A DNA stretch of 64,000 nt from Bugula neritina (Eukaryota; Bryozoa; Gymnolaemata; Cheilostomatida; Bugulidae). Positions within the stretch are counted from its first letter, which is position 1. Every line of letters begins with the position of its first letter. The position numbers and the translations under genes were made by a program. Below, in pieces: positions 19,029 through 50,353 of this stretch. Below the pieces are notes generated by a model. The model saw only the letters and a list, made by a program, of their open reading frames with translations. It made no database searches and was not told the DNA's origin. The stretch is taken from assembly GCA_964035545.1 (NCBI GenBank), contig OZ037771.1, positions 15,173,789-15,237,788 on the forward strand, given 5' to 3'.

Positions 19029-22000
19029 ATGGGTGCATGGAACCAGTTGGCTCTCTGGTATATAGTAGCAGCAGGTGGGTGGTTATGAGATATACACAGA
19101 GTCTCTACCAGCTGTAGTATTCACCAATCATTGGTCTGTTTAGTAAACATTCACCAATCATTTGTCTGTTTAGTAAACATTTACCAATCATTTGTCTGTT
19201 TAGTAGATCTTCACCAATCACTTGTTTGCTTAGTAGACATTGGTCACTTTATATGCAATGATGTGATACATTCAATACTTTCTTGTATGTTTTGGTTTAT
19301 AAAGCATGCGAAGTGAACATACAAATATAGACTGGTAGATTTCAATGCAATTATTAATGCTTCATTAACATTTGCAGTTTATCCTGTCCCAAAAACCTTT
19401 AGGGCATGTGAAACAATGGTCACTATTTTATAGCCAATCAAAAATTATTATTTGGGTAAATATTAATCATTAATTTGTTGATTACAAACTTCTAAATGTT
19501 TATGTTTGACTTTAACAAACATAAAATTTTATTAGAGGTAAATAATTTGCATTAGCATCATTTTAGCTGTACTGCCTGGTAACAGAGCAGTCCAATACAC
19601 TTATGGAGAAAAGGGAAAAGACCCGTGTTTGACTGTTGATATGTCAATGAACTTCCAAATAGTATATACGGTAAGCAGTTACTCTCAGTGTAACAATATT
19701 GCTAGTAGTACTAAGTATTGAGATATTATAAAACTTTGCCCCCACTGAGATTTGAACCTGATGTAGTGATGAGTTTACCCAGCGGTCCCCGTGTCGTAAT
19801 CGTTAGCACACTTGCTTGCAAGTCGGAGGTCTCAGGTTCGATTCCCAGTGGGGGCAAAATTATTTTTCAAGCTATTTCAGCCTTTAGTGAAGTGGAGTAG
19901 TACTCCGAGGGAGTTGAAGAGCTAGGGGAGCCTGAAAACTGAAGGAGTAGTGGATAGGCCAGTGGAGTTCAGAGAACTGAGTGGGATGTAGTGATGAGTT
20001 TACCCCGTGGTGTAATGGTAGCACACTTGCTTGCAAGCGAGAGGTCTCAGGTTCGAATCCCAGTGGGGGGCAATTATTTTTCACCTGAGACATCTGGCTT
20101 GCAAGCAGGTGAGCTAACCATTACACCACAGGGGCCATACTGGGTAAACTCAACACTGCATACAAGCAGAATGAAAGTCTACTGAGAATTCAACACAGAA
20201 GCATATTTCTGTTAGCTCTACACATGAGTATGTACTCATTCTAGGAGCAAGATTCTATCCTATTGATGAAATGTTTCAGGCAAGGCATGGACTTCGGGAA
20301 GTGTTCGAATTTGATCCGGAATACACAAAGATTGAGAACATAACAGGAAGCTGTCGCAGCAAAGAGCTCAGAATAACATATGAGTCAGTTATCAAGTACC
20401 TCAACTTTGCCATTACAGAAAATTCTACCAACCCGAACTCTGGACTAGATATTTCTTTGGCCTACAATCCGCATGAAGCATTCTTATCAATTGAAAGTGA
20501 GTTACTATAACTATATTATATTCTTCACAATTTCAAAAAATTTCAATTTTAACTAGGTTTGAACAGTGATTAGATAGTATTTTGGCTTAAATTTCATATA
20601 GGAAAATCCAGTTTTACAAAATCAGGAATAAATTTACTTTCAAATTTATAATTTGTTTTTTTTTTCTTTTTAGAAAATGAGCAAAAAACAGTTTTTCTAA
20701 ACAATCCATTGCCACTTGCTCCTTATGGTGCATCAACAACTTGCAACGAAACTCAAAATCTGGCGTTAGGCCCATATGTAAGGCTATCCATCAACTCTAT
20801 GAGAGTTCATGCCAATGGTATACAAAACAAAGGCTTCAATGTATCACAAGGTTGGTCTACACTCTACAGGATATAAGAAATAAGACGCTGTGTTTGGCAA
20901 ACATTAAATACTAGTCCTATACAAGTCATTTTTATGGTAATGTGAAATTGATGTTTGTTAAGTACAAGCTGTGGGCTATGCCAACTCTATTTTTATTTTA
21001 AATAGAGTTGTGTGGAAATACCAGTTATCCAGAGAAAATTCTCCCCACAAGACCCAGTTGGTGGTACACAACCAAAACTGCAAGACCCAGTTGGTGGTAC
21101 AAAACCACAGCTGCAATACCAAGCTGGCGGTACACAACCACAGCTGCAAGACTTACTCAGGAGCACACAACTAAAACTACAACACCCAGTTGGTGGTACA
21201 AAACCACAGCTGCAAGACCCAGTTGGTGGTACAAAACCGCAGTTGCAAGACCCAGTTGGTGGTACAAAACCACAGCTGAAAATTCTACTCAGGAGCACAC
21301 AACCAAAGCAACAAGACCCAGTCGGTGGTACGCAACCACAGCTGCAAGACCCAGTTGGTGGTACACAACCACAGCTGAAAATTCTACTCAGGAGCACACA
21401 ACCAAAGCTACAAGACCCAGTCGGTGGTACGCAACCACAGCTGAAAATTCTACTCAGGAGCACACAACCACAGTTGCAAGACCCAGTTGGTGGTACAAAA
21501 CCACAGCTGCAAGACCCAGTTGGTGGTACACAACTAAAACTACAACACCCAGTTGGTGGTACGCAACCACAGCTGCAAGACCCAGTTGGTGGTACACAAC
21601 CAAAACTGCAAGACCCATTTGGTGGTACACAACCACAGCTGCAATACCAAGCTGGCGGTACATAACCACAGCTGCAAGACTTACTCAGGAGCACACAACT
21701 AAAACTACAACACCCAGTTGGTGGTACAAAACCACAGCTGCAAGACCCAGTTGGTGGTACAAAACCACAGCTGAAAATTCTACTCAGGAGCACACAACCA
21801 AAGCTACAAGACCCAGTCGGTGGTACACAACCACAGCTGCAAGACCCAGTTGGTGGTACACAACCACAGCTGAAAATTCTACTCAGGAGCACACAACTAA
21901 AACTACAACACCCAGTTGGTGGTACAAAACCACAGTTGCAAGACCCAGTTGGTGGTACAAAACCACAGCTGCAATACCAAGTTGGTGGTACGCAACCACA

Positions 22001-23278
22001 GCTGCAAGACCCAGTTGGTGGTACACAACCACAGCTGAAAATTCTACTCAGGAGCACACAACTAAAACTACAACACCCAGTTGGTGGTACAAAACCACAG
22101 TTGCAAGACCCAGTTGGTGGTACAAAACCACAGCTGCAAGACCCAGTTGGTGGTACACAACTAAAACTACAACACCCAGTTGGTGGTACGCAACCACAGC
22201 TGCAAGACCCAGTTGGTGGTACACAACTAAAACTACAACACCCAGTTGGTGGTACGCAACCACAGCTGCAAGACCCAGTTGGTGGTACACAACCAAAACT
22301 GCAAGACCCATTTGGTGGTACACAACCACAGCTGCAATACCAAGCTGGCGGTACATAACCACAGCTGCAAGACTTACTCAGGAGCACACAACTAAAACTA
22401 CAACACCCAGTTGGTGGAACAAAACCACAGCTGCAAGACCCAGTTGGTGGTACAAAACCACAGCTGAAAATTCTACTCAGGAGCACACAACAAAAGCTAC
22501 AAGACCCAGTCGGTGGTACACAACCACAGCTGCAAGACCCAGTTGGTGGTACACAACCACAGCTGAAAATTCTACTCAGGAGCACACAACTAAAACTACA
22601 ACACCCAGTTGGTGGTACAAAACCACAGTTGCAAGACCCAGTTGGTGGTACAAAACCACAGCTGCAATACCAAGTTGGTGGTACGCAACCACAGCTGCAA
22701 GACCCAGTTGGTGGTACACAACCACAGCTGAAAATTCTACTCAGGAGCACACAACCAAAGCTACAAGACCCAGTTGGTGGTACACAACCACAGCTGAAAA
22801 TTCTACTCAGGAGCACACAACCAAAACTACAACACCCAGTTGGTGGTACAAAACCACAGCTGCAATACCAAGTTGGCGGTACATAACCACAGCTGCAAGA
22901 CTTACTCAGGAGCACACAACTAAAACTACAACACCTAGTTGGTGGTACAAAACTACAGCTGCAAGACCCAGTTGGTGGTACACAACCAAAACTACAAGAC
23001 CCAGATGGTGGTACACAACCACAGTTGCAAGACCCAGTCGGTGGTACGCAACCACAGCTGCAAGACTTACTCAGGAGCACACAACTAAAACTACAACACC
23101 TAGTTGGTGGTACAAAACCACAGCTGCAAGACCCAGTTGGTGGTACACAACCAAAACTACAAGACCCAGATGGTGGTACACAACCAAAGCTACAAGACCC
23201 AGTTGGTGGTACAAATTAAAGCAATTTGCTCAGTACTATTTCAATATCAACAATCTAACCATAAATCAATACTCTTAA
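19029..23278 (+). CDS. LAMP-domain protein with giant Trp/Tyr/Thr 11-residue repeat, no transmembrane exon
   Basis: Proposed exons: 19029-19074, 19567-19670, about 20229-20496, 20674-20850 and 21006-23278 (about 955 aa). Exon 1 is a signal peptide. Exons 2-4 resemble the N-terminal lumenal domain of the LAMP gene at 29069: exon 2 is 104 nt in both, the intron phases agree, and the cysteines (DPCLTV, TGSCRS, STTCNE, ELCGN) sit in comparable places. The last exon would correspond to the LAMP hinge but encodes about 66 copies of an 11-residue unit like ARPSWWYKTTA, alternating with an STQEHTTK variant, then a short tail and stop. There is no second lumenal domain, membrane span or YxxΦ tail, so the product is probably secreted. 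The exon 3 acceptor is the weakest junction. The long antisense Cys-rich frame is considered a shadow because only the plus frame joins the upstream exons in phase. Confidence 0.7.
19735..20155. repeat. cluster of tRNA-derived SINE-like pieces
   Basis: This lies in intron 2 of the LAMP-domain repeat gene. It holds a truncated minus-strand piece (19735-19760), plus-strand heads at 19771-19860 and 19996-20077 separated by a ~125-bp body, and an inverted head at about 20088-20155. The heads carry GGTTCGAWTCCCAGTGGGGG (B box) and a gtgtaatggtagcac-type A box, and they start with gagtttaccc. Because complete tRNA folding is poor, these are repeats rather than tRNA genes. Confidence 0.7.
21040..23215 (+). 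repeat. 33-bp coding tandem repeat with 693-bp higher-order period
   Basis: About 66 units built on cccagttggtggtacaaaac, mixed with a variant containing ttactcaggagcacacaac. A block including the rare acccatttggtgg unit recurs exactly 693 bp (21 units) apart (21611 and 22304), showing recent block duplication. Confidence 0.95.
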
Positions 23279-27778: not shown

Positions 27779-28775
27779 ATTTACACTGTACTAGTAGTAT
27801 ATTAGTATTACACTGTACTAGTAATATATTAGTATTACACTGTACTAGTAATATATTAGTATTACACTGTACTAGTAATATATTAGTATTACACTGTACT
27901 AGTAGTATATTAGTATTACACTGTACTAGTAATATATTAGTATTACACTGTACTAGTAGTATATTAGTATTACACTGTACTAGTAGTATATTAGTATTAC
28001 ACTGTACTAGTAGTATATTAGTATTACACTGTACCAGTAGTATATTAGTATTACACTGTACTAGTAGTATATTAGTATTACACTGTACTAGTAGTATATT
28101 AGTATTACACTGTACTAGTAGTATATTAGTATTACACTGTACTAGTAGTATATTAGCATTACACTGTACTAGTAATATATTAGTATTACACTGTACTAAT
28201 AGTATATTAGTATTACACTGTACTAATAGTATATTAGTATTACACTGTACTAGTAATATATTAGTATTACACTGTACTAGTAATATATTAGTATTACACT
28301 GTACTAGTAGTATATTAGTATTACACTGTACTAGTAGTATATTAGTATTACACTGTACTGGTAATATATTAGTATTACACTGTACTAGTAATATATTAGT
28401 ATTACACTGTACTAGTAATATATTAGTATTACACTGTACTAGTAGTATATTAGTATTACACTGTACTAGTAGTATATTAGTATTACACTGTACTAGTAAT
28501 ATATTAGTATTACACTGTACTAGTAGTATATTAGTATTACACTGTACTAGTAGTATATTAGTATTACACTGTACTAGTAGTATATTAGTATTACACTGTA
28601 CTAGTAATATATTAGTATTACACTGTACTAGTAATATATTAGTATTACAATGTACTAGTAATATATTAGTATTACACTGTACTAGTAATATATTAGTATT
28701 ACACTGTACTAGTAGTATATTAGTATTACAATATACTAGTAGTATATTAGTATTACAATATACTAGTAGTATATT
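27779..28775. repeat. 27-bp satellite, ~37 copies
   Basis: Nearly perfect 27-bp units (ttacactgtactagtagta...tta) differing mainly by aat/agt at one site. Each unit holds the palindrome ACTAGT. It ends about 290 bp upstream of the LAMP start codon. Confidence 0.97.
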
Positions 28776-29068: not shown

Positions 29069-29782
29069 ATGGAAAGTTTACAGATTTTACTGATGATCTG
29101 TTGTAAGTTGCAATTTCCTCTTATACATTATACTTATATTATATATAATATTATATTACCTACATTATATTCTGTTATACTATGCCCTGTTCTGTTCATT
29201 TCTGTTATATTCAATTTTACTTTGCATGTCATATTAAACTATAATTTAATATTTTACCATGTTATTCTATATTCCAAACTACTATATTTTATTTCAATTG
29301 CTATATACTTTTTATCATATTCTATTATATTATATTGTGTGGGTCACATATTATATTCTCATTTCATCACTTAGTTGCAATTACTAGTATGTAACTGGTA
29401 AGGATATGTTCTTTTGCTAACGTATTTTATCTAAATTAATAATGCGAGTATTACAGTCGCTGCCTTACATATGTTACAGTCATCACCTTAAGTTCAGGAT
29501 ACACATTTGAGTATACAGATGATGCTGACACATTTGCTTGTCTCAGAGTGAAGTCTAACTTCACCATTGTTATAAACTATGAGGTAATATGGTATCCATG
29601 TTTATATTCATTTGGTGTATTTCTTTAATCTTATGGTACATCAGCTTGAATAATTGGGTCCTATAAGTTGAATTTATTGCTTATAATAATTTAACAAAAG
29701 CACTTATAAATTTCTGATTAGTCACGGATGGTTTTATAAAATTTGGTTTTTATTTGGTTTTGATATAGTAGTAAAAATATCG

Positions 29783-29871
<89 letters not shown>

Positions 29872-30131
29872 AATCTGTGGACAGCAGCTGTTTCGGGATT
29901 TGTCCCCTCATCAGCACAGAACAGAGTACCATGGCCCACACCTTCGCAATAGTAAAACTTATAGTTTTACTAAAGCATATTTAAAAGGTGTGTAAACTCA
30001 AGCCAGAGTGCTCAAGTAACTCTAGGGGTCACCTAGGAGTCACGAGCATTGCAAAATGCTAGCAGCTTGAGTTTGTGACCATGGTGAGAGTGCTCAATCA
30101 TTTAATGTCATTGCTGAGCATTAAATGAGAG

Positions 30132-30207
<76 letters not shown>

Positions 30208-33200
30208 TTAATATGATTTCATCACAATTTCTAAATTAGGAATTCAAATAATCTCAGTACGTTATCATATAGCAACTGTATAATCACCATTCATGGTAAT
30301 TATATAAAGCTGGTTTTCACCTGTTTGCGTGTACCCACCCTTGCTCAAAGGTTAGTGGTAAAGGAAAGACAATTTCTAATAATAATGTGTTTTTACTTCA
30401 GACAAAAGATGGAATGAGATCACAGCCGGTATTGCTAGCCGGCTCAGACGGGAGTGAGGGGTCTTGTGAGACAGAGGGCGGGGGTCCTTATGTGACATAC
30501 ACTCAATACCCTCCTGAATCCGTGGTTACCTCCATTTCCTTCACGTTTGAGAAGTCTAAACAGAATGTTTCCTCGCTAAGTATTAGCCTGACGTATGATC
30601 CACACCTTCTGGACTATTCCATAGAACGTAGGTCCTTCTATCAGTGTTCAGTTTCTTTTTTAATATAGAAAAGAAAACTCCAACTATGACTTAACAATGT
30701 TCAAATAAGGAATCATAGGGTTGGTTGGTTGGTTGCAAGTTGAAAATTGATAAGATTAACCTGTAAAGCTGAAAGTTGTAAGCAGTGGCAGCGTTCACCT
30801 ATGACCTCAAGTGTGAGAAATCGGTACCTCAGATGCTGCTCTTCATTTTAGTTGCTTTTAGAGAAATACTTGGCGTTTGAAAGCTGCCATTCTCAATGGG
30901 CCATTCTAGTTAAGTTAGTAACAGCTTGGGTCGGGAGTAGATTGAGTAGTTTTAGAAGTGTCTTGTCTCTTTTTTCTTCAGTTAACTAGAAGGAAATTCT
31001 TCATCCTAGCAGTTGTAACTGATCAAATTCTAAAGAACGTGACAATTTTATTGCCGATGGAAAAGTTGGTTATAACATTGAGTGATGCACTGGTTTGATT
31101 TCAGCTGAGAAAGCTGTCACGGTTGATTTAGCAAGTCCAATACCTCTGTCAGACACCGGTCACTCTTACTACTGCAACAAAACTCAGATGTATCAGATGG
31201 GAAACGTCACCCTCTCCATCTACTACATGCAGGCTCAAGGATATGGCATGGTTAATGGCACCTTCAGCCCTCCAGCTGGTACGTTATTCAGCCCTCCAGC
31301 TGGTATGCTATGAGTAGTGCTTAAGATGGCAAACGTTTCGGCACTTTCACCAAACACACCATTTTTCATGCCCAGTTTTTTTTCATTCCTACTCTAAATT
31401 TTTATAGTCGAGCTGAATTTAATTGAGTCTTCAAAGACAAATTAATTTTATATTAGTAAATATTTTTCACTACTTTGGCAACAATGACAAAGGAATTTGG
31501 TTTTCTATTCGTGTAAGAGCTGTTACAAATCTTAGATCATTTTTCTTCAAGATCATTGATGATAACATATCGCTCAACTCACTTTGCTGTATTCAATCAA
31601 TGTTTCTGTTTTAGTTGATCATTGTTCACCACATATTTTACCAACTACAACTAGAAGGACCACACCTACTACAAAGACCACACCTACTACAAAGACCACA
31701 CCTACCACAAAAACTACTCCTACCACAAAAACCACACCTACTACAATAACTACTCCTACCACAAAAACCACTCCTACTACAAAAACCACTCCTACCACAA
31801 AGACCACACCTACCACAAAAACCACACCCACTACAAAGACCACACCCACTACAAAGACCACACCCACTACAAAGACCACACCTACTACAAAAACTACACC
31901 TACCACAAAGACCACGCCTACTACAAAGGCCACACCTACTACAAAAACCACACCCACTACAAAGACCACTCCTACCACAAAAACCACACCTACCACAAAG
32001 ACCACACCTATCACAAAGACCACACCTACAACAACTGCAAAGCCCTCAGACGTTGACACTTTTGCCGTGAAAGATGATGGAAAGATCTGTCTATTACTAA
32101 AAGCATCTTTAGAGTTGCACATCAAGTATAAAGTATCTAACAAGGTACTGACTATATCATGTCAATTTTATTATTAAACTTTTATGACTTGTTATATAAG
32201 CTGGATAATTAAATTGCATTCTGTTATTTGAACTTCACTTACTGTCTATTTATCTTACCATTATACCCTTTTACGTGAGCAGACAAAGAGTGTAGACGTG
32301 ACAGCACCCGCCCGACCTCGATTCAATGGTAGCTGTAGCTCCACTATGGACATGCTGGTGATAGAGTGGGAGGATAAAGTAGTATCAGTCAACATGACTT
32401 TGGAGTTTACTAATAGTAGCAGTAACTTCAGTCTCTCTACTGTTGTCATGACTTACACTATACTAGATGATAGTAAGTTTACTAGAGCATAGTAAGTATA
32501 TTAGATGATAGTAAGTGTACTAAGAGATAGTAAGTATACTTACACTAACTTACACTTGTGCTTCATTTCAGAATTCACAGGAAATGCGATGGTGAGCAAC
32601 CTGAGTGATTTCTCCACGCAGCTGGGTAACTACTACTCCTGTGATTCCAGTACAAACATTTCTCTCAACAAAGATGTCTCTCTGTCTATGAAGTCCGTCA
32701 AACTGCAGGTCTTCAGAAATAAAAATGAAACGGGTTTCTACGGTGCAGGTGAGTTTCAGTTGACAGAAATAGGTGACCTAACACTTAACAGTCTGTGTTT
32801 TATAAACTTTCAGCAAAACTTGTGTTTTAGCAAGGAAATATAACACTTACATCTTGTAGATAAGTAGACACTCTATAATATTTAATTCGAGTACATATAC
32901 TGTATTGTGTAAATGTCACAGAACAGCTCCTGAGTTGACACAAACTTACATTTCTGACTCTTTCTGTTCGGTAAATTTCCCTTCTTATATTTTTTTATGA
33001 TTAATTTTCTTTCATATCCATAGAAAGCCAATTGATTGTATAGAAACGTTTGTAGAGTAGTGATTCACTTGCTTCTATTCTAATATCTCCATCATTCATT
33101 TTCCTGCCTTCAATTACAAAGAGACTTATAAAAATTGCATTCAAACAGCCAATAAGATTTATTAGTATAAGCTGTAGTGTTTGCCATGAATTCAGAGTTA

Positions 33201-38200: not shown

Positions 38201-41200
38201 CATAACACCTATTTACATTGCTTGACTAGCCAGGAGGGGGGGGGGTACATGTGTAGGTGGCCGTACTTCTATCACTTCTTCGCCAGCCGTTTCTCTAGTC
38301 GGGTCTGCAACTTAGCCAGCTCGGTGGTCGCTCGCTTCTGTTCCTTACTGAGGCGAGCCATACGCCATTGCACTTTCCTAATGTCAGTTAGTAGGGATTG
38401 GTCAGGGTCGCTGTCATCTCGGGGTGTGCTGCTAGCACCCCTCTTCTTCTTATGGGTGTGTCGGGGCACGTAAGAGATTGTCGTCGTTGGGGGTTGTGAG
38501 TCCTTCGTTACAGCGCGTCCAGCACGGGTCACTACGACGCGTAGGGGTTGGGTGGTTACGTCTGGAGGGTAGGTAGTCGTTATTTCGGAGGGTTGGGGGT
38601 CTGCATCAGAGTCACTCTCTACTGTAGGTCGGGTAGCGGGGAAGTGGTCCAGGAGAGTCTGTCGTCGGTCTGGGTCGGTCACGTGAGGTAGTATTAGGTC
38701 CCTGAACTCCGTGTAGGAGTCCGCGTCGACTTCATACAAGTGTCCAACATAACAGTCTCTAGTCCGTTGGTGTCGCAGTATCGTGTCCCTGCAGAAGTGG
38801 TGGACTCCGCAGGGACAGAAAGTCACAGTAAAGTGTTGGGGAACATGTATTCTCAGTCTCCTAGTAGTCGATAGTATTCTTCTACATTCAGTGCATTGTC
38901 TATTGTCGTCTGTCCCTACTAGTGCTTCTATCAGTGTTCGAGTCCGTCGAGTCGTCCAGTTAGTCCGTCCCAGTAAGGCCCGTGGTAGTGCTAGAGTATT
39001 GTCCTTGGCTACAGTCAAGTCATCAGTCAAGTCGTTGGTATCAATTTGCATCGCAGTGTGTGTCGGGGAGTCCGTAAATGTTGCTAAGTGTATGTCGGAC
39101 AGCATGTCTACCCCTGCTTCTGACATGCTGTCCCAGTTAGTCGTAGGCGTGTCAAGTAATGCCTGTATCTCGTCGGATACAGGCTCAGTCTCACCTGCAA
39201 TAGAGTATTTAAATTTAATTACACTCTATGCGTGGGACTCCCGTTCCAAACGATATTAATAATCGAGTCTCACAGTCTGTCACTCACTGATCGTGTAATC
39301 AGCTGAGTCGACTGTCCCACTCTAACTATCAATATCATTCGCTGTCAGGAGTTTCAACTTTATCATTATGACAAAGTGAGACTGCTGTCGCTACCAGAAT
39401 AAATTCTAATTAATTATTATAGAATTTCTAGTAGACTTACCCCCCAAAACAGTTGCTGCATTAGACATAATGATGCTGCTGCTTTCTTAGGGCTCGTAGA
39501 TAGCCAAATTGTTTATTGCAAAAGACGTGCTGCCTGTTTGCTAGCTGTAATTGAAAAGAGCGCTCACAGCTAGAGTGCTTATGTAACACCCTATACGCTG
39601 TGATTTGGCTACGCTCTGCTGACCCCCGGCTGACCTATTCAATCCGCCACTGGGTCGCCTGCTATCAATTACTTCGCTCCCCCAGACTTCTTTGTGAATG
39701 TCGCCATGCTACAGAATACTGTGCATGTCGACCAAGTCACACAAGAAGTCTTTTAAATAAGATGGTGGCGCCCTGGTACGTTGGCTACGGTCCAACGGTA
39801 CCGGGGAGTTTGCTGCGACTGGTGACTCTTCCACCACGGGTGGTGTCGCCAGTACGGGGGGGTCCACCAGTACGGGTAGTCCTCCCCCAGCTGCCTCTCC
39901 CTCACTATTTTGGGGGATTTCCATCTCATCCGGAACGATGGGCCTGTCGACCGGCTCCACAGGTGGTGGGGCCGGCTCTGACAAGTCTTCAGGTGTGTCG
40001 ACCTCCTCTTCCTGGGGTGGAGGAGGCTGGGGCTGGTCGGCCGACGCATCAGCCGCCCCGTCCTGGTCTGGCAGTATCTCCTCAATCTCTCAATATGCCA
40101 TGGGTCGCCCCCTCATAGGAGGGCGCCTAGCTGGCTCTAAGAGAGGAGGTGCTTGACCTGCCGCATCAGGACTTGCCCAGTGAGGTTTTAGCCGTGCCTC
40201 GTTCTGGACCGACACTTGTCCAGACCGTTCCACTTTGTATGTATGGTTTGGCATTACCTCAATTACGCAGTAGGGACCTACAAACTTTGGCTGCAACTTG
40301 GCTGCCTGTCCGCGCCTGCGGCGATGACTGGTCATCCAGACCCAGTCCCCCACCTTGTATAAAGGTGGGTCGTCAGAGTCACCACTCCTGACCTGCCACT
40401 GCTGCTCACGTAGCACCTCGTGAGCCGTTCCCATGCGTTTTACGAGCTCGTCCACGTAGTCGTGGACATTGCTCTCGGGATTCGGAACATGATAGATTAC
40501 GTGCTCAGGAACCCTTGTTTCTCTCCCCAGCATGAGAAAATTAGAGGTCTCCAGTGTACTGGAGTGAGGGGTACCACGGTACGCTCGCATGATCTGCGGC
40601 AACACCAAGTCCCACTCTTCCTGGCTCCTACCGATAAGCAGGCTTCTCAGAGAGTCCCCTAGCATTCGGTTGTTCCGCTCCACGACCCCGTTCTCTTGCG
40701 GGTGATACGGGGTCGTCCGACTCTGGTTTACCCCCACACTCTACAGAGATCGCTCATAAGTTGCGACTGAAACTGGGCGCCTTGGTCAGAGTGTATCTGC
40801 TCCGGCAAGCCGAAATAGCAGAACACCTGCTGATCCAAAGCTCTGGCCACCGAGGGGGCCGACGCATCTGGAATAGCCATTGCATCAGCCCACCGCGTGA
40901 AATGGTCAGTTAATACCAGTATCCAGTTATTACCTCTCGCTGTAGTGGGCATGGGGCCTACCAGATCGACAGCAACCACCTGCCACGGACGACCGGCATG
41001 AAGGCGACGCCTCCCTGCGGTCTCAGTGGGGCGGCCATGCTTGCTAGCTTGGCACACCTCGCACTTCCGCACCCGGAGTCGGACATCTCGGGTCATACCG
41101 GGCCAAAACCACTGAAGTTGAAGACACCTGATCACCCGGCTAGCTCCTGCGTGAGCTTGCTTATGGGTGTCCCAGATCAACTCCCGCCTCAAAGCTGACG

Positions 41201-44200
41201 GGCAGACTACCCTCTCTCGTTCACTGCGATTGGTGCCGGCTGCCAATGTGATTGTTAGCAGCCCATCGCCGTTGAACCTGAGGGAGTCCCAGCGGTCACA
41301 GAAGTACTTAAACTCAGTACTCTTCACTCGCTGTTCGGCCTCACTCGGCCGCCGTCCCTCCTTCTTGGCCCGGACTAGGTCAGCTACCACTCCTGGTAGC
41401 GTGGACTGGAGCCGACATAGCTCCCTGACGTTCCGAAGCAACGTGGGGTTTGCGTGGAGGTTGTTAACAGCTTTGTTGGGTGATTCGGACAGGAGTTGCC
41501 CTTCTTCCCAGCTGTACACACCCGCTTTTCCCAACTGCGCTTCGACGTCCGAGCGAGGGGGTCCACCGTCCCTGCGCTCGATATTCTGGCATTGCTTACA
41601 CCCATCTGCCTGGCGGCGGCTGAGTCCATCTACATTACCGTGTTTCTTACCGGGTCGATGCTCGATCCGATAAGAAAACTCTGCCAGGATCTCTAGCCAG
41701 CGCGCCACTTGGCTGGATGGTTCTGCCCGTCGACACAGCCATATCAGGGACGCATGATCCGTCCGAAGCCGGAATGTGCGCACATATAGATATGGTCTAA
41801 AGTGTTTGACCGCCTTGACTACTGCCAAGAGTTCCCTCCTGGTTGTACAGTAGTTCTTCTCAGGCGCCGACAGGGCCTTGCTATAGTAAGCCACCACCAC
41901 CTCGCGACCATCTTGGACCTGCGATAGCACAGCCCCCACATTATGGTTACTAGCATCAGTATCCAAAATGTACTCCTTCGCAGGGTCAGGATACGCCAAG
42001 ATGGGTGCTTCCACCAGGCGATCCTTCAGGTGGTCAAATGCCTTCTGCTCAGCCTGCGTCCACTGCCATCGCACCCCTTTTGCGGTCAGCCGATTTAACG
42101 GCTGTGCAATTCCGGCGAAGTCTGGTATGTACTGACGATAGTACCCTACCAGCCCCAGGAACGCCCGCAATTCAGAGAGGTCGACAGGAACGGCCCAGTC
42201 CCTCACGGCCCGTACCTTCTCGGGGTCGGTGGTGACCCCGTCTCGACCAACTACATGGCCCAGGTACTTGTCCTCGCGTTGCAGTAATGCACACTTCGAG
42301 GGTTTTAGCTTCAGGCTAGCAGCTCGGAGTCTGTCGAACACCTCCCTGAGTCGACTGACATGTGTGTCGAAGTCGGGGGAGATGACGATGACATCATCGA
42401 GATATATGAGCAAGGTCTTCCAGTGCAGTCCACTCAGGACCTGCTCCATGAGTCGCTGGAAGGTGGCTGGTGCGGACGTGAGTCCGAATGGCAACACCTT
42501 CCATTTCCAGAGCCCATCCCGCGTTATGAACGCGGCCTTGTCCTGTGCTTCAGGACTCAGGGGCACCTGCCAATACCCGCTTAGCAAGTCCAACGTGCTG
42601 AAGAACTTGCTACCAGCTAAGGCATCGAGCGACTCATCGATCCTCGGTAGAGGGTAAGCATCCTGGATGGTCACGCTGTTCAGCCTGCGATAGTCAACGC
42701 AAAACCTCCAGCTACCATCCTTTTTCCAAACCAGGACGACTGGAGAACTCCAGGCCCCATGGCCTGGCTCAATCAGGTCCCGGTTCAGAAGGTCTTGCAC
42801 CTGACGGCTCACTTCTCTCTCCTTCTCACGACCTAACCGGCGGGTCGGCTGCCGAATCGGCACCTTCCCCGCCGCCAGGGGTATCTCATGACGAACCATC
42901 TCAGTCAGACCCATGTCATGGTCGCCGCAACTGAACACGTCCTTGTACTCAGAGAGTAGCCGCGCCATCTCCAGGCGTTCTCGCTTGCTCTCACAGCCAT
43001 CACAGGCATCCTCGTACAACTCTGCTACGTGTTCAGGCACCGGCCCCCTGCCGTCTCTAGTGGGTACTCCCCGGGCACCGTCCGCTGTTTCCAGCGCGGG
43101 CCCTACATCCTCCTCTTGCACGGAGTGAAACTTCCCTACTAGAGACCCAGCCGGTAATTCTACCGGCTCCGTGAAAGGGTTTACGCACTGGACCAGGAAC
43201 TCCCCCCGCTCATCCAGTCTATTCAGACTGTTAGCGAGCTGGACGCCCCCCAGTGCACCTTCCACCACTCCGAGCTCGGAGATCTCCCTACAGTTCACTC
43301 TGCAGCGAACTGTAGCCCGGGAGCGCCCAGGTACAGTACAGCGCTGTACCACCTGCACTCCCCCCACCAAGGGTCGGCCAAATCGGTCGACACAGGCCAG
43401 CTCACGCCCCGCCATCACTACTGCCGACTTGCTAAAGTCTATGTAGCACCTGTGTCGTTTCAGAAATGGCATGCCCAAGATGGCATCCTTCTTGAGTTGA
43501 CTGACGATGAAGGTCTCACTGATCATCTGATCACAGACTTTACCAGTCAACTGGATTACCCCATAGAAAAGAATACACGACCCGTCCGCCAACGTGCCGT
43601 GCTCCCCTTCATATGGTTCTAGGCTAGCCCTGTCCCTGGCACTGAGAGTGTCGAAGAGACGTCGACTTGGTAGATTTGTGGTGCACCCAGTATCCAACAG
43701 GAATGTGGCAGCTTTACCAGCAATTTTGCCGGGGAGGAAATAGCTGCTTCCATATGGCTGAGCGCTCACTGAGCGGTTTGTCTCTTGAGGCGACACCTCA
43801 TGTGCATGGAGTTGGGGATGCACCTGTGCTTTTCGGTTTGCGAGGGGGTCGTCGACGTTGTATGGGCGGGCAGGGTACGTCTCGGTCTCGCTCACACACG
43901 GGCGGCCGAGTGAATTCTCGGACTGATGCTCGTGTGGGCAACCGAGGAAAATCCCTGTTGTGCTCCCATTCGTCGTTCACTCCCTCATTAAGCAAACCTT
44001 CAAAGCGGTTTTTGAGTGCCCAAGCCGGAGGTATTGGTGGGCCTTGCGGCCGACTCACTCTCCTTGGGGCTTGCCACTCTGGCGAAGGCGGCCTCCTCAC
44101 CCGGTGGGGTGGGGGCCGTAGCCTCTGCCTTGGGGGGTTAAACTGGGGCCCACGGTAGGCGGAAGTTACCGTGGGCCGTCGCTGTTTAACCGCCTCCCAC

Positions 44201-47200
44201 TGCCGCGGGGGCAACTTCGTAGGAAGTGTCCACCACTACCACAGCCCCAGCATACGGGGCCGCGCCTGTCGTCGACAGCTACCGACGACCTCTTGGGTCT
44301 CTCGGCTGTCGCCTGCTGGCGCAGTTGCCTGATCTCGGCGAGCAGTTCTCGAATCAAGCTCGTGGTTAAGCTAGATTCGTCTGCTGCTGCCGCTGCGACC
44401 TGTACAGCTGTTTTCGTTGGCGACGTCGACACGTCGTCTGCCCCGACTTGCTGTACTGTCGCGCCAGGTCGACTTGCACTGTCGGCTTGGAAATAGGCAT
44501 TCCCAAGCCTTAGAGCTCTCTCCATGGTCTCAACTTCGGCCACCAGCAGATGCTGTTTAAGACCGAGGTTGTTAATAGACTGGAGGAATGCATCCAGTGC
44601 TAGGCTCTGTCGACCATCGGCAGGCAAGTCGCTGTAAGCAACTTGTGCCAGTCGTTCGACTACGGTAGCGTGCTCTCGCAGATTGGTCTTAGGATTTCTC
44701 CTAAGACTCTGCAGTTGCACGCGAGCATCTCGAGCGGTTAATCCAAACCTAGCTCGTATTGCTTCAAATATGTCACCGACATTCTGGCTTATCCCATAGG
44801 GTTTAGCCGGCCCTGTCAGACACAACCGCAGCTGGATCAGAGTAACCCTGTTCGGCCATCCGCAGATGTCCGCCACATCACTGAACTCAGTGATGAATTG
44901 CTCCACATCTTCTTCTCCTGAGAAGATGGGAGCCCGCAAGTGGTACCTGTCCATAGGCAGCGCTGGGCCGCCTATGTGATCCTCCTCTATTGCTGCTGGC
45001 TCCTGTCGGGGCGCGTCGACGACTTCGTCGGTCATCTTACTCCCTGGCTAGGGGCATTTGTACTAAGTGAAATCCCACCGCTGCCACCAGTGTAGTGAAT
45101 TTTGCCAGTTCACTATTATTATTGTGTGGGTCTACTTAGTCAAAGCCACTGCACCAGGTTGTTTACGATAAGATACTTTATTATTTACACAAATACAAGA
45201 AGGTTATTTACTGCTAGCATGAATAGAAAACGATTACATAATTAGTGAGCTTTAATACACAACTACTCTAAATGAAGTCCCAAGCTGCTCTGCCGGCTAG
45301 CTACTCAGCGCACTGCAACTACGAGTAGCTAGCTCCACCTGCTGTTAATTAGTGTCACTGTCCTGATTGGTGGCTACTAATGGTGCCACTACTGTCCATA
45401 GTTACACTCCGACAGTGTCGAACTCACAAGATAAATAAACCATATAAAGTATAAACCTTTTCGATTAATATAATAAGAATTGCACTACTAAAATCTATCA
45501 CAATATAACATGTTTTATTGGTATATATCATCATCAAACAATTTTTAGAGAAAGTTATAAGAAATATAAATCTCAAATAAAACACATATAGCACATATAA
45601 ACTAGAATATATTATGATTATTTCTACTGGAATTAATCATAATTTGACTGCAATCTTGTATGAGTACATATGTAGTGTATTAGACACAGTTAGAAGGTTA
45701 CCATTCCAAACCAGTGCACAAATGAAGAAAATTGAATGGTGGGAAAAAATATTTATAATATATTTATTTTTAGCAGAATAATAATTTCATACAAATATGT
45801 GAACACTAACTAGTTATTACATGGAATATATGAATTATATTGAAGAAGTAGTAAGTTTATACGTTACAGACATAAAATAATTACATTTAGTAAAAATATT
45901 CAGAAATTTCCTGTATAAAATAATTCATGCTTGAAAGGGTTGAGCGAAGTAACAGCTTACGTTGATGACAGGTTCTTTGGCCGGCACCACGTATCTGCCG
46001 TGCTCCTCTATGACATCATTTATGAAGTCGTGACCTTTCTCCCGAATCAGCAGCTGACAGTTCGGGGATTGTCTGGCGTGTCTCACCCAAATATTCTCCA
46101 CCGTCGTCCAGTTTGACATTTCTACGCCACACGAGAAGCAGCACACCGTATCCCCTTCACCTGCAGTATACACCTGAGTATACACCTGAGTATACACCTG
46201 AGTATACACCTGAGTATACACCTGAGTATACACCTGAGTATACACCTGAATATACACTTGAGTATACACCTGAGTATACACCTGAGTGTACACCTGAGTA
46301 TACACCTGAGTATAAGAACTATGTAGCTCCTTCACTTTAGTAGCATAGAACCTTGCCCACACTCACAGTTTTATACACAGAGTTGAAGAATGTTGGACTT
46401 TTGGGAAGTGACTTTGACAATAATAATTGTCGCTCAAATCATACCATATATCGTATCGTACCATATCGTATTGCATCATATCATATATCGTATCATACCA
46501 TACCGTATTGCATCATATCATATATCGTATCGTACCATACCGTATTGCATCATACCATATATATTATATTCTAATATAGCTACATAGTTAACCTGTTTGT
46601 AGGTTGGATGGGGAATGTATATATATAAATTAGAACAATGTTAACATGATAATATCAAGTATGTATTATAGAATTAGAACAATATATAAATTTATAACAC
46701 TGTGTGCCAGGAAATTAGAACAGTGGTGTGTTGCTATTTTTCAACCAATGCATTTCGAAACACTATAAACTTCAAGATTGATAATTGAGAGTTATGTTCT
46801 CAACATTTTCATGAACGAAGTAAAACATTGAAGTTAAAAATACAGTGTAGGTCTCTATAAATAGAAATATATGTCTCATTATGTGTCACATTACTTATCC
46901 ACCCCTGTATTGGGGGAGACTAACTTATCCGCCCCTGTATTGGGGGAAACTATAACTTATCCGTCCCTGTATTTGGGGAGACTAACTTATCCACCCCTGT
47001 ATTTGGGGAGACTAATTTATCCACCCCTGTATTGGGGGAAACTATAACTTATCCACCCCTGGATTGGGGAGACTAGCTTATCCACCCCTGTATTGGGAGA
47101 GGCTAACTTATCCACCCCTGGATTGGGGAGGCTGAACAGGGGTTGTTATGCCGTACCTTTGTAAAAGAGAGGAGAGTTGATAAACTCTACGGCCATCTTT

Positions 47201-50200
47201 CTGTTCGGCCTCGGCCATGTTAGAAATGTCGCCTCCCTCCGAGACTGGACGGCCATTTCCGGGTGTTTCACGACCTCGGTGATGATGCCAACACCACCAA
47301 GAAGGTTAGACTGAGAGTCTGGGTCATTAGCCACTTCGAATAAATCCGACAATACGTCTGGGACATTGGTAACTGCAGTGGAGCCTGCGATAGATAGTAT
47401 ATAGAACTCTGGTTATTATATAGACTGTAGGCAGTGTAGAGAACTCTGGTTATTATATAGACTGCAGGCAGTGTAGAGAACCCTGGTTATTATATAGACT
47501 GTGGGCAGTGTAGAGAACCCTGGTTACTATATAGACTGTAGGCAGTGTAGAGAACTCTGGTTATTTTACATACACTGTGGGCAGTGTAGAGAACTGTGGT
47601 TATTACATACACTGTGGGCAGTGTAGAGATATAACAAAACTCTGAGGTACAAATGCATAGAAATAATGACTCATAAGAAATTCCCGACGTCACACCATCT
47701 GCTAATGTTATAGATACCGGAAGCTTCAGAGTTTAACCCGGAAATCCCGCGATAATCCGGAACTAGTAATAGTAACACTTTCTAAGATGGTGTTTAGTAG
47801 AGCTGTTATTATTTGTCACTCACATATAGCTAGAGGAGGGGAGAGGAGTATATATTATGGTAAGTTGTTTACATTATTATGTAATAAATATATGTATTTT
47901 ATGTGTATATATATGCAATGGAATGCCAACATTAAAGCACTATAGTTTAGCTGAAAGTAGAAATAGCCTGTGTACCTTGAACAAATTGACAGCCAGGTGA
48001 GGATTTTATGTGACGGTCATGTGGTGTTGTCTCATTGTCCCAGTCCCTCAGTCTAACTTTGCAGTAAATACATTCAACCACATCACCATGGCCTACAGAA
48101 TAGCATTGTACTGTGTTACTACATGTGTTACTACAGTGTTACTACATGTGTTACTACATGTGTTACTACATGTGTTACTACATGTGTTACTACATGTGTT
48201 ACTACATGTGTTACTACATGCGCAGTGTTACTATAGCTATAACACGCCACTGAAGTTTAGTATTACTGCTTCGCACACCCCAGTAAGAACTACTATTCTT
48301 GCTGTATTTACATATCACAGTTAAAGTAGGCGGTGCTAACAGCAAATAGAGGCGTGTTTAACTATGCTATGCAGTCGATAGATAACTGGAAGTGAATACA
48401 ACTCCGCACTTGGCATTGCTTTACATCTGCAGCCGCAAAATATCAAACATTATTCTAAAAACAGGCTAGGAAAAAGCATTTTAGACCAAGCTCTACAAGA
48501 GTAAATTTACTGAGAGGCATAGTGAAGGGCTCAACATACATAGGCCTACCAACTCCCAGGCTAATCACATGAAAATGAGTAAATGGAAAATGGAAGATTT
48601 AGTAAATTTTAACTATTGCGCAGTAATTGCATAACTCACATTTACATGCACGGTTATATAATTACTAGCTACAGTTGGCTGCAGATATGGGTGTAGTGTG
48701 AGTTCCTACGCAACCAATAAGCTATTTACGTAGAGCTTTATTACTAAGTTATAATGTGTGAGGCTAGCCTTTGTTATCTTAGCTGCGGTAGGAATATAAG
48801 CCACAGCACACTACTCTAGTGCGTTGTATTATCATCATCGATCTCACCGTACCTAAATGACGAAACAATTATACGGAATATTACTTGGGTATTGCGTAGC
48901 AACTTTCCAATAGAAATGCGTCATGAGTCGGTAGAATGATAAAATTAGTAACTAGTAAGAATGCAATAGCAAAATGCAAAGCTATGAATCATAGTTTTAT
49001 CATAATCCAATTGTTTCATTGAGCAATGTCAACAATATGAATCATCACAAACTTTATAAAACTGCATGGCCTCTACTAATTTTTGTTAGTTATATTTTTG
49101 CTGTTCTAGGATTAGGATGTGAAAAAAGAGGCTGTGCTACACAAGCCTACCTACCTTGATAGACGAAGCCACTGGCCGCCAGCTCTCTAGTGGAGATGTC
49201 AGGTCGAGGCCAGGAGACAAAGGAACGTCTGCGGTTTCTCTCATAGCAGAATTCTGGAAAGCTCTGAGGCTGATCAGGAGGTAAGCTCAGGAGAATGTCG
49301 ATATGATTTTGAGAAATTAGAGACCTAAATGTTCACACATGTATCGTATTAGTCATACTCCACTTGAGAACTCAATGGTTTTTGTCAACTGCACGCTATG
49401 TAGGTCAAATGCAGTAAAAGTTTTTTGGTGTTTGTGTGACCAGCAAATGCAAATGCTGCAAATTTGCTGCTGGCTGGGTGTGACAGACCAACACAGTGGG
49501 AGGCCTATATTTAGCTGTGTTGCAAAATTAGGCATTTTGCATATTTACCACTTCATGATTTGCTATTGACTAGAAGTTCAAATAGAAAACCAAATATTAC
49601 TACAGCTTAGTTACCTAAGATGAGCTTTTTAATTAGCCCAGCCATAAAAGGTGAGTTTTCTAGTGAGTCTAGCTACCAGGTGGGTTTTTTATTGAGCCCG
49701 GCTACACTTAGCGAGGCTTGCAATGACAATGCAAGGAGACAACCTTTAGCTAATCATAAAGGTCAAGGGCAGGTGAAGTTCATTGTCACTCCATCTCATC
49801 ACACTTGAGATCGACTGTGTTGTGTCTAACACCATACCTGGGTGGTCTAACACCACACCTGGGTGGTCTAACACCACACCTGGGTGGTCTAACACCACAC
49901 CTGAAGTGGTCTAACACCATACCTGAGGTTGCAGTGCTTTGCATACAGCCCCTTGATATCAGTATCGTCCGACACACCATCTGTGGAGTTGTCTCGTATC
50001 CTCGACAACGTGACGTTCTGCTGCAGACCAGAGGCCGTCTGCAGCTCTCTGTGAGTCACGGCCACTTCCTCTTCTGTCACAAACGGTACGTTCAGGTCGG
50101 TCAGGTTGTGACTGGCATTGTTATTCAAGAACTGACAGTTTGGAGCAAATGTCTTGTGCCATGCTAGCGGCTGGTGGGTCGGCTGGAGACCTCTGACCTT

Positions 50201-50353
50201 GAGACCACACACCTTGCAATGGAACAAGTTGTGCTCAGAGTCGTACACAAAGCCGGCTAATGCACAAGGTAGGGACGGTGCTGAGGGCTCCCTTACAGTA
50301 CAGGTTCTCAGACGGAAATACTGACTATTGTGGGATTTATTCGAAGTGGCCAT
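35271..50353 (-). CDS. inhibitor-of-apoptosis protein IAP-A (BIR-BIR-BIR-UBA-RING), complete
   Basis: Nine exons in descending order: 50353-49923, 49285-49155, 48092-47976, 47384-47157, 46160-45961, 36981-36859, 36326-36047, 35952-35863 and 35365-35271. Every junction is GT-AG and phase-consistent (1,695 nt, 564 aa). BIR1 in exon 1 has CKVC-x16-H-x6-C. BIR2 (exons 2-3) has SFVSWPRPD and CIYC-x16-H-x6-C. BIR3 (exons 4-5) has ATFLTWP and CFSC with the downstream H and C. Exons 6-7 encode a UBA-like helical region followed by an acidic linker. Exons 8-9 encode a C3HC4 RING (CKVC...LPCGH...CPLCRQ) ending six residues after TVRTTF. The layout matches cIAP/XIAP/DIAP2 proteins, E3 ligases that bind caspases and ubiquitinate signalling partners. 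Intron 5 (9 kb) contains a Gypsy element in the same orientation. Confidence 0.92.
35384..35583. repeat. 50-bp minisatellite, ~4 copies, IAP-A intron 8
   Basis: Units containing gatgacagcgcaatatac and ccttgggcagcaagctacag. They begin within 20 bp of the exon 9 acceptor. Confidence 0.9.
37000..37395. repeat. 34-bp minisatellite, ~11-12 copies, IAP-A intron 5
   Basis: Units ggtaacttacatgtacatac + agtacttactgtga, starting about 20 bp from the exon 6 acceptor. The same repeat occupies the homologous intron of IAP-B at 55815. Confidence 0.95.
37612..37615. repeat. target-site duplication ATAT, left copy
   Basis: Matches ATAT at 45503-45506 next to the other LTR. Confidence 0.7.
37616..38025 (-). 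repeat. 3' LTR of the Gypsy element
   Basis: 410 bp, TG...CA. A minus-strand AATAAA (37707-37702) lies 86 bp before the end and could act as the element's polyadenylation signal. Confidence 0.93.
38026..38036 (-). other. polypurine-like tract
   Basis: On the minus strand, ggcgaggagag abuts the 3' LTR. It is purine-rich with one interruption, as expected for the plus-strand primer. Confidence 0.55.
38272..39468 (-). CDS. accessory ORF3 of the Gypsy element, two exons, Cys/His-rich
   Basis: Exon 1 is 39468-39441 (28 nt, starts ATG) with donor GTAAGT; exon 2 is 39194-38272 with acceptor ctattgcag. The 246-bp intron joins in frame (phase 1), giving about 316 aa. Without splicing, exon 2 has an in-frame TAG just upstream and its first Met is internal. 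The middle contains a zinc-finger-like cluster: CTEC, then HVPQH, CPCG, HHFC, RHQRTRDC, GH. The C-terminus is basic and coiled-coil-like (LSKEQKRATTELAKLQTRLE). It takes the position of env but has no signal peptide or membrane span. I recall similar proteins in other invertebrate Gypsy elements, but the function is unknown. Confidence 0.7.
39709..43895 (-). CDS. pol: Gypsy pol polyprotein (PR-RT-RNaseH-IN), interrupted
   Basis: The frame is open upstream to about 44000. Protease has LLDTGCT. Reverse transcriptase has FCVDYRRLN and the catalytic YLDD. RNase H has DTDASNHNVGAVLS. Integrase has the HHCC finger (HKQAHAG...CEVCQASK), the first Asp in VAVDLVGP and SDQG. A one-base loss in a run of five (plus-strand C's 40731-40735) shifts the frame, and the rest of integrase (ENGVVERN glutamate, C-terminal chromatin-like VGDWVWM part) continues at 40737-40090. 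A TGA at 40092-40090 separates the Pro/Glu-rich tail, which then runs to 39709 and ends with a typical TRAPPSYLKDF-like segment. Relative to the probable gag C-terminus, pol is in the +1 frame. As read, integrase would be truncated. Confidence 0.93.
43798..45035 (-). CDS. gag: Gypsy gag (capsid and CCHC nucleocapsid), with probable frame break
   Basis: The clean frame is 45035-44166 (289 aa). It has a capsid-like region (YHLRAPIFSGEEDVEQFI, typical of Gypsy gag) and a CCHC knuckle (CWGCGSGGHFLRSC). A one-base gain in the C run directly after the knuckle (plus strand G's about 44207-44211) would connect it to a long Pro/Arg-rich frame, 44214-43798, which reads like genuine gag C-terminus (WALKNRFEGLL, DEWEHNRDF). 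I therefore treat the tail as part of gag, broken by a homopolymer indel. The tail overlaps the start of pol by about 200 nt. Confidence 0.8.
45071..45089 (-). promoter_or_regulatory. primer binding site for tRNA-Leu
   Basis: The plus strand reads AATCCCACCGCTGCCACCA, the 3' end of an animal tRNA-Leu (AAG-type) including CCA. The minus-strand complement, one base from the 5' LTR, is the primer site. Confidence 0.85.
45091..45502 (-). repeat. 5' LTR of the Gypsy element
   Basis: 412 bp; all differences from the 3' LTR (three substitutions and a 2-bp indel) fall within 45430-45455. Confidence 0.93.
45503..45506. repeat. target-site duplication ATAT, right copy
   Basis: Matches 37612-37615. 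Confidence 0.7.
46165..46314. repeat. 12-bp minisatellite at the IAP-A exon 5 acceptor, ~12 copies
   Basis: Plus-strand unit tatacacctgag; on the gene strand each unit reads ACTCAGGTGTAT, mimicking the real acceptor ACTGCAG/GTGA. It directly abuts the exon at 46160. Confidence 0.95.
46440..46566. repeat. ATCGTATC-rich minisatellite in IAP-A intron 4
   Basis: Nested repeats of atcatatcatatatcgtatc and ccataccgtattgc. Confidence 0.85.
46895..47140. repeat. ~32-bp minisatellite at IAP-A exon 4 donor side, ~8 copies
   Basis: Units acttatccacccctgtattg + ggggagacta, ending about 15 bp from the donor at 47156. Confidence 0.92.
47395..47635. repeat. ~37-bp minisatellite at IAP-A exon 4 acceptor side, ~6 copies
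   Basis: Units with gactgtaggcagtgtagaga and actctggttattatata, starting about 10 bp from the exon 4 acceptor (47385). Confidence 0.92.
48110..48222. repeat. 12-bp minisatellite (TGTGTTACTACA)n at IAP-A exon 3 acceptor side
   Basis: About nine copies, beginning 18 bp from the acceptor at 48093. Confidence 0.93.
49830..49925. repeat. 21-bp minisatellite containing the IAP-A exon 1 donor
   Basis: About five units. On the gene strand each holds CAGGTRTGGTGTTAGAC, with GT at 49922, 49900, 49879, 49858 and 49837; the first is the phase-correct donor. Confidence 0.9.

What the first reader, a model, noticed from the sequence alone, without database searches (positions are those of the whole stretch)
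29874..29920. Complete hammerhead ribozyme motif in a LAMP intron
All conserved core bases (CTGATGA, GAAA, GTC cleavage triplet) are present on the minus strand, with an exact 6-bp stem I (TCTGTG/CACAGA), a 4-bp stem II and a minimal 4-bp stem III with a 3-nt loop. Chance assembly of the core plus three compensating stems is very unlikely. Type I hammerheads with tiny stem III are known from Penelope-like elements and animal retrozymes. Here it closes a ~266-bp structured, non-coding repeat bounded by long (TA)n tracts.
Basis: partly seen in the sequence, partly recalled or inferred. Interest (0 to 1): 0.88.

Follow-up and report, generated by a model that had tools for sequence, protein, structure and literature searches.

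The report
Hammerhead retrozyme targeting TA repeats
A bryozoan genome holds hundreds of copies of a hammerhead motif, in a 271-base non-coding element that is predicted to cut its own RNA; nearly all examined copies end at one fixed base in a run of TA, and examined copies of a resident Penelope-like retrotransposon, whose enzyme likely copies the element from an RNA circle, also end in runs of TA.

Summary
The hammerhead is real: on the minus strand at 29920-29874 every core base and three stems are present, and a descriptor hits the window once but none of 100 resampled windows. It sits in a 271-nt non-coding unit (29866-30136). The genome matches Bugula neritina; the core pattern occurs 378 times in it (reversed control 0). 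Units of 271-272 nt form head-to-tail arrays, and two subfamilies differ partly by compensatory changes. This is an animal non-LTR retrozyme, a known kind. New is its insertion anatomy: in 58 of 60 loci examined the 3' end is one base, GAGATA or GAGGTA (or a one-base variant) running into (TA)n; 5' ends vary, 36 of 60 exceed one unit, with TA microhomology. All 40 fetched ends of a Penelope-like element also run into TA repeats, at two AU-rich sites in its own ORF start. Both elements occur as head-to-head pairs and some share a TA tract. Inference: a (TA)n DNA end anneals to AUAU on the circularised RNA and the Penelope-like enzyme copies round it. No cleavage, circle or transposition was assayed; Rfam's threshold is not reached; 'LAMP' is weakly supported.

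The parts
29866..30136 (-). Retrozyme monomer, 271 nt, family 1 (one copy; differs from the reference unit by C119T and a T to C change at its second base)
   Evidence: 99.6% to the unit found in tandem arrays elsewhere in the genome
29874..29920 (-). Type I hammerhead: stem I 29920-29915/29879-29874, core CTGATGA 29914-29908, stem II 29907-29904/29898-29895, GAA 29894-29892, stem III 29891-29888/29884-29881, predicted cleavage 29880/29879
29865..29871 (-). GAGATAT: fixed 3' junction and proposed site where a (TA)n DNA end anneals and reverse transcription starts
   Evidence: same junction base in 58 of 60 loci
29786..29867 (.). (TA)n tract at the 3' end of the retrozyme (element orientation)
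30137..30204 (.). (TA)n tract at the 5' end of the retrozyme (element orientation)
29922..30132 (-). Highly paired non-coding body of the unit
   Evidence: z -8.58; about 72% of bases paired in the circular fold; two double compensations between subfamilies; no stop-free run over 49 aa in any circular frame of either unit

Best explanation
This is a copy of a retrozyme, a small non-coding retroelement of the bryozoan Bugula neritina, whose 271-nt RNA is predicted to cut itself with a type I hammerhead and likely be closed into a circle that the enzyme of a resident Penelope-like element would reverse-transcribe from (TA)n DNA ends. Steps: (1) read-through transcription (inferred); (2) hammerhead cutting at GTC|CAC (predicted from the motif); (3) ligation to a circle (inferred from reported animal retrozymes and from templates that span the joined cut site); (4) a broken (TA)n end anneals to AUAU (family 2: UAU), which begins 11 nt 3' of the cut site, and primes reverse transcription (the fixed junction is shown, the priming is inferred); (5) the enzyme copies one or more rounds, and the cDNA end joins the other side, in family 1 most often where AUAU is met again (end positions shown, joining inferred); (6) the enzyme is the Penelope-like one (inferred from the TA target, junction form, head-to-head pairs and adjacency).
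For: 378 genomic core matches, reversed control 0. Tandem arrays of 271-272 nt up to 5 units. 3' junction at one unit base in 58 of 60 loci; 55 of 60 3' flanks are at least 80% alternating TA over 20 bp, against 0.03% of the window outside the element. 36 of 60 loci exceed 1.025 units, many ending inside a second round, which one cut linear monomer cannot give; the 3' ends carry the joined cut site. 5' ends: 20 of 39 (family 1, AUAU) versus 3 of 21 (family 2, UAU) lie at the start site within 2 nt, Fisher p 0.006; 36 other 5' junctions have mean TA microhomology 1.28 versus about 0.71 for random breakpoints, P 0.0004. Subfamily differences include U12-A36 to C-G, U89-A128 to G-U and stem II G.U to G-C. 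Penelope-like RT copies with open frames up to 777 aa, 1343 protein relatives. 40 of 40 fetched tails run into TA repeats at two sites; in 3 of the 18 class B ends the junction itself reads AGATATATA as in family 1. Two of the 40 tails run through TA into a retrozyme (L092, L096) and one retrozyme has a Penelope tail ending 14 bases 5' of it (L040). Head-to-head layout with outward 3' ends in both: nine pairs of Penelope-like tails and both retrozyme pairs read; in each retrozyme pair the two halves share a variant seen in no other held locus.
Against: No transcript, circle, cleavage or transposition data. No sequence found to be shared by unit and Penelope-like element beyond short words, so how the enzyme would recognise the RNA is unknown. 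In the published lizard element reverse transcription starts at a site not homologous to the cut DNA and unprocessed RNA is the main substrate (PMC11167929). One subfamily difference, A34C, breaks a pair. Some arrays may have grown at DNA level: in L031 three variants repeat at the internal junctions but not at the array ends; in L050, L005 and L017 variants are not shared between units. A long uncut multimer could replace the circle. The 60 loci are the best-scoring ones and some may be segmental duplicates. Other TA-targeting retrotransposons were not surveyed.
Confidence: 0.74

Rival explanations
1. The retrozyme is a true retroelement but is copied by some other (TA)n-targeting reverse transcriptase (for example a LINE), and the Penelope-like element merely shares the target.
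For: Other retrotransposons were not surveyed for TA junctions; no sequence similarity to the Penelope-like element was found beyond short words.
Against: 40 of 40 fetched Penelope-like tails run into TA repeats, 3 with the same AGATATATA string; head-to-head pairs in both; both carry a hammerhead or hammerhead-like motif.
Confidence: 0.15
2. The template is a linear uncut multimer or read-through transcript of a genomic array rather than a circle; the ribozyme is dispensable for copying.
For: The lizard Penelope-like element uses mainly unprocessed RNA in vitro (PMC11167929); DNA alone cannot tell a circle from a multimer.
Against: Many loci hold 1.03-1.6 units, which needs multimeric sources although single-unit loci are common; the core is kept in 64 of 66 distinct units (weak, because the copies are young); animal retrozymes elsewhere accumulate as circles (PMC7229834).
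Confidence: 0.2
3. A satellite-like repeat spread by DNA-level duplication and microsatellite recombination, the hammerhead being a relic.
For: L031 and shared variants within some arrays fit unequal crossing-over.
Against: Copies lie on all nine large contigs with different flanks, one fixed 3' junction and variable, microhomologous 5' ends; the ribozyme core is kept.
Confidence: 0.05
4. The motif is a chance hammerhead-like sequence.
For: No Rfam model passes its cut-off; the isolated 50-mer prefers another fold.
Against: 0 descriptor hits in 100 resampled windows; 378 genome matches versus 0 control, though these are copies of one repeat; stem II changes from G.U to G-C between subfamilies.
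Confidence: 0.02

Closest known systems
Metazoan non-LTR retrozymes (Cervera & de la Pena 2020, PMC7229834: coral, mussel, axolotl)
   Same: Type I hammerhead; unit of a few hundred nt; GC below 50%; tandem copies; non-coding, strongly self-paired; Penelope-like elements in the same genome
   Different: Here the 3' junction is one fixed base in TA microsatellites with microhomologous 5' ends; the review PMC7761336 (passages) says that animal retrozyme repeats show no conserved motif that reveals the mobilising element; phylum Bryozoa
Penelope-like elements with minimal hammerheads (Poseidon of Anolis, Frangieh 2024, PMC11167929)
   Same: The resident Bugula element has the RT, a GIY-YIG-like C-terminus, a hammerhead-like motif before the ORF (with an extra U before stem II), and ends at two sites roughly 20-40 nt apart inside the ORF start (the 'tail'); head-to-head pairs fit extension of both strands
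   Different: The retrozyme codes for nothing and has a 4-bp stem III; the Bugula end sites are homologous to the (TA)n target, whereas the lizard start site is not homologous to the cut DNA
Plant LTR retrozymes (PMC4918200, seen in search listings only; features from the animal papers)
   Same: Non-autonomous, hammerhead-bearing, reported to spread through circular RNA
   Different: Type III hammerheads in LTRs; here no LTR and a type I hammerhead
RAGATH-1 hammerhead, Rfam RF03152
   Same: Aligns to core and stems at 29920-29875
   Different: 19.1 bits, far below the 56.3 cut-off

Membership tests
Type I hammerhead ribozyme | Conserved core CUGANGA, GAA(A), NUH and three stems, open at stem I | tested here: met
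Type I hammerhead ribozyme | Rfam covariance-model score above gathering cut-off | tested here: not met
   no RF00163 hit; RAGATH-1 19.1 of 56.3 bits
Type I hammerhead ribozyme | Self-cleavage at the predicted site | not testable with these tools
   Needs in vitro transcription
Metazoan non-LTR retrozyme | Tandem/dispersed units of 150-450 bp carrying a type I hammerhead | tested here: met
   271-272 nt units
Metazoan non-LTR retrozyme | GC below 50%, strongly self-paired RNA | tested here: met
   GC 0.43/0.46, about 72% paired; z -8.58
Metazoan non-LTR retrozyme | Non-coding | tested here: met
   longest stop-free run 38-49 aa over all circular frames of both units, 17-22 aa from a Met
Metazoan non-LTR retrozyme | No LTR, primer binding site or polypurine tract | tested here: inconclusive
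   Units join head to tail without other terminal repeats; primer site and polypurine tract were not searched for
Metazoan non-LTR retrozyme | Co-resident Penelope-like elements | tested here: met
Metazoan non-LTR retrozyme | Target site duplication (when present) | tested here: inconclusive
   Flanks are mostly (TA)n, so a duplication cannot be read
Metazoan non-LTR retrozyme | Accumulates as circular RNA | not testable with these tools
   No RNA data
Penelope-like element (the proposed helper) | Penelope-like reverse transcriptase ORF | tested here: met
   720-aa ORF, RVT_1 E 1.8e-10, 1343 relatives
Penelope-like element (the proposed helper) | GIY-YIG endonuclease | tested here: inconclusive
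   Pfam GIY-YIG misses the Bugula domain, but relative P0030 carries PF01541, and Y626, Y639, G641, E642, R646 and H654 are invariant in 16 aligned proteins
Penelope-like element (the proposed helper) | Optional tail: insertions end at two sites inside the ORF start | tested here: met
   22 class A and 18 class B ends of 40; the tail translates as MFLVYLFIIKLLARKDIF, the N-terminus of P0001

The most novel reading that the evidence does not exclude
A circular ribozyme RNA that lives as a parasite of a Penelope-like enzyme through a four-base landing pad: AUAU on the circle lets a broken TA microsatellite prime rolling reverse transcription, and the same four bases end the copy, so one microhomology sets target choice, start, stop and array length, with both broken ends able to copy the same circle.
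Probability: 0.55. Interest if true: 0.82.

Novelty: new variant of a known kind. Interest (0 to 1): 0.7.

Why it matters
Which machinery spreads animal retrozymes is open: the papers read here argue for Penelope-like elements from co-occurrence, shared hammerheads and tandem copies. Bugula gives junction-level evidence, a definable start site, two natural variants of it (AUAU, UAU) and a helper with long open frames in one genome, so the question becomes directly testable with one purified protein, one circular RNA and one (TA)n oligonucleotide.

Tried and rejected
Rfam Hammerhead_1 in the genome gave nothing and its control rang nowhere, so it is uninformative. Pfam GIY-YIG found one genome hit and missed the Penelope-like domain. 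No meaningful sequence similarity between unit and Penelope-like element beyond short words. Sharing of private variants within arrays was considered as proof of a single circular template and rejected as decisive: L049, L042, L038 and L027 share, L050, L005 and L017 do not, and L031 looks like DNA-level expansion. The core pattern was absent from viral contigs (records near the window's genome may be left out there). Solved-structure searches gave no useful match. A first guess that the host was a sponge or tunicate was wrong. On checking, the 150-aa ORF list was no test of a 271-nt unit; one search replaced it.

What was left out of counts: one search dropped element groups under 200 nt or within 60 bases of a locus end and merged duplicates, leaving 62 groups; L070 (two groups, composite) was left out, giving 60. 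They come from the best-scoring copies of two searches, not from all 378 matches. The two L067 copies share a 5' end and may be one duplication; L018 and L041 share a variant. The microhomology test omits start-site rows and L065. In one search one of ten rows (L065) was cut 12 nt out of register. TA-tract lengths were measured before the 5' ends were re-extended and are not used. The two head-to-head retrozyme pairs were picked for that layout from the 100 places that one search lists; a third close pair in that list, on C2 at 33418463, has the opposite layout and was not read. The 40 tail ends are 40 of the 43 near-full rows, themselves the best of 388 candidates; the query copy (L042) also ends in TA, and two rows on C5 were not fetched.

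Full report
Observation. The minus strand at 29920-29874 carries a complete type I hammerhead. A descriptor with core and three stems, written after seeing the motif, hits the window once and hits none of 100 resampled windows. Rfam does not call it: nothing reaches gathering score, and on a 68-base stretch RAGATH-1-hammerhead aligns to core and stems at 19.1 bits, cut-off 56.3. In the circular fold, forcing the native hammerhead costs 3.7 kcal/mol in family 1 and 2.8 in family 2; the forced fold adds a 3 x 2 internal loop and 3 more pairs to stem I.

Source.

Copies. A 266-base query gave 58 genome matches, many 99-100% identical, several at 271-base spacing; a second subfamily, 272 nt, gave 127 rows, including short inverted self-matches of a hairpin, with arrays of up to five units. 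Each search had about 700 first-look candidates of which 40 were scored, so these are lower bounds. The core pattern has 378 exact matches in 215.8 Mb, reversed pattern 0. Of 66 distinct near-complete units (82 in all) 64 keep the core and 60 keep all 6 + 4 + 4 pairs. No stop-free run exceeds 49 aa in any circular frame of the two units.

RNA structure. The window's copy folds with z -8.58; the circular units have about 72% of bases paired. In ten aligned units the subfamily differences include two double compensations (U12-A36 to C-G, U89-A128 to G-U) and G.U to G-C in hammerhead stem II, while A34C breaks a pair; a hairpin also gains a G and a C on opposite sides. Diversity is low: this is in effect two lineages.

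Insertion anatomy. I analysed 60 loci. The 3' end lies at the same unit base in 58 of 60 (L046 one base earlier, L038 seven). 55 of 60 3' flanks and 44 of 60 5' flanks are at least 80% alternating TA over 20 bp; outside the element 0.03% of the window is. 5' ends vary: one locus is shorter than a unit, 23 hold about one, 36 hold more, with ends at unit positions 59, 113, 154, 174, 214 and others. Because the searches favour full copies, the lack of short copies means nothing. At 36 non-main 5' junctions TA microhomology averages 1.28 bases against about 0.71 for random breakpoints, P 0.0004. The unit reads GAGAUAUUACGC in family 1 and GAGGUAUUAUGC in family 2 across the junction; 20 of 39 and 3 of 21 loci begin there within 2 nt, p 0.006 (loci treated as independent, which some may not be). 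The AUAU begins 11 nt 3' of the ribozyme cut site, so each copy contains the joined cut site, and none of the 60 begins and ends at the cut site: templates were continuous there, as a circle or an uncut multimer would be.

Helper. A Penelope-like RT probe gave 67 matches, with open frames up to 777 aa. One copy, L102, has a 720-aa ORF with RVT_1 at E 1.8e-10; it has 1343 relatives among the candidates scored, of which 120 are listed, 104 of these with RVT_1, PF28514 and PF26215 and one with GIY-YIG. Upstream of its tail L102 has CTACT CTGAAGA TGGGTACAGTGGTACCC GAAATATT AGTAG, which I read by eye as a minimal Penelope-type hammerhead with an extra U before stem II; in L042 stem I is not kept and Rfam does not match it. 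The tail translates as MFLVYLFIIKLLARKDIF, the N-terminus of relative P0001, 97% identical, so insertions end inside the next copy's ORF start, as in the lizard element, where the tail is the stretch between two reverse-transcription starts (PMC11167929, main-text section read). The 40 tail ends fetched, of 43 near-full rows, all run into (TA)4 or more (in L105 after an interrupted stretch): 22 at TTTATA and nearby, 18 at AAAGATAT and nearby. In 3 of the 18 (L089, L090, L120) the junction string is AGATATATA, as in retrozyme family 1.

Both elements together. Two of 40 tails run through the TA tract into a retrozyme (L092, same orientation; L096, inverted); one retrozyme has a Penelope tail ending 14 bases 5' of it (L040). 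Nested insertion or template switching would both fit. Eighteen of the 43 near-full tail rows form nine pairs with outward 3' ends within about 2.4 kb. Two retrozyme pairs of that layout were read: each has GAGATA running into TA on both outer sides (short on one side of L123) and a TA tract between; the 5' ends of the two halves differ, and the two halves share a variant found in no other locus held (L123, L124). That fits two DNA ends copying one RNA rather than a plain inverted duplication, but it rests on two cases.

Known or new. Animal retrozymes were described in 2020 (PMC7229834; abstract, Discussion and passages read), with Penelope-like elements named a strong candidate from co-occurrence, shared hammerheads and tandem copies. 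The review PMC7761336 (passages) says that animal retrozyme repeats show no conserved motif to deduce the helper. In the held library, bryozoa with hammerhead ribozyme finds 0 papers, and Penelope-like with microsatellite, insertion and TA repeats 0; a six-term search found 4 papers, none with TA microsatellite or TA repeats. Subscription papers are largely missing, and supplements were not read. From recall only: some Penelope-like clades are said to insert in short tandem repeats, so TA targeting by such an element alone may not be new.

Verdict. Retrozyme membership is about as firm as sequence can make it, short of RNA data. The fixed TA junction is shown. Circle template, TA priming and the Penelope-like helper are inference, the last with the widest gap: nothing shows how the enzyme would pick this RNA.

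Noticed in passing
window 40090-45035 (-): LTR-retrotransposon-like element: 1055-aa ORF (40728-43895) with RT, RNase H, integrase zinc-binding and integrase core domains; neighbouring ORFs at 40090-40737 and 44166-45035 look like its integrase end and gag by eye.
   Followed up: partly
G000:C7:15248984-15250611, about 11 kb beyond the window end: Head-to-head pair of Penelope-like tails with outward 3' ends; nine such pairs among the tail matches.
   Followed up: partly
L102 (G000:C3:16070150-16073250), 230-350 and 2950-3060: The Penelope-like copy lies at the (TA)n centre of a palindromic repeat (read by eye), which suggests that the TA tract was the pre-existing target.
   Followed up: partly
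window 29494-32500 (+): Exons of a gene with weak, sub-threshold LAMP luminal-domain similarity and a threonine/proline repeat of 18-bp period at 31650-32034.
   Followed up: partly
window 27781-28775, 21048-23213 and many others: The window is crowded with minisatellites, for example 36.9 copies of a 27-bp unit and a 2.2-kb array with a 99-bp period.
   Followed up: no
window 49889-50353 (-): ORF with a BIR (inhibitor of apoptosis) domain.
   Followed up: no
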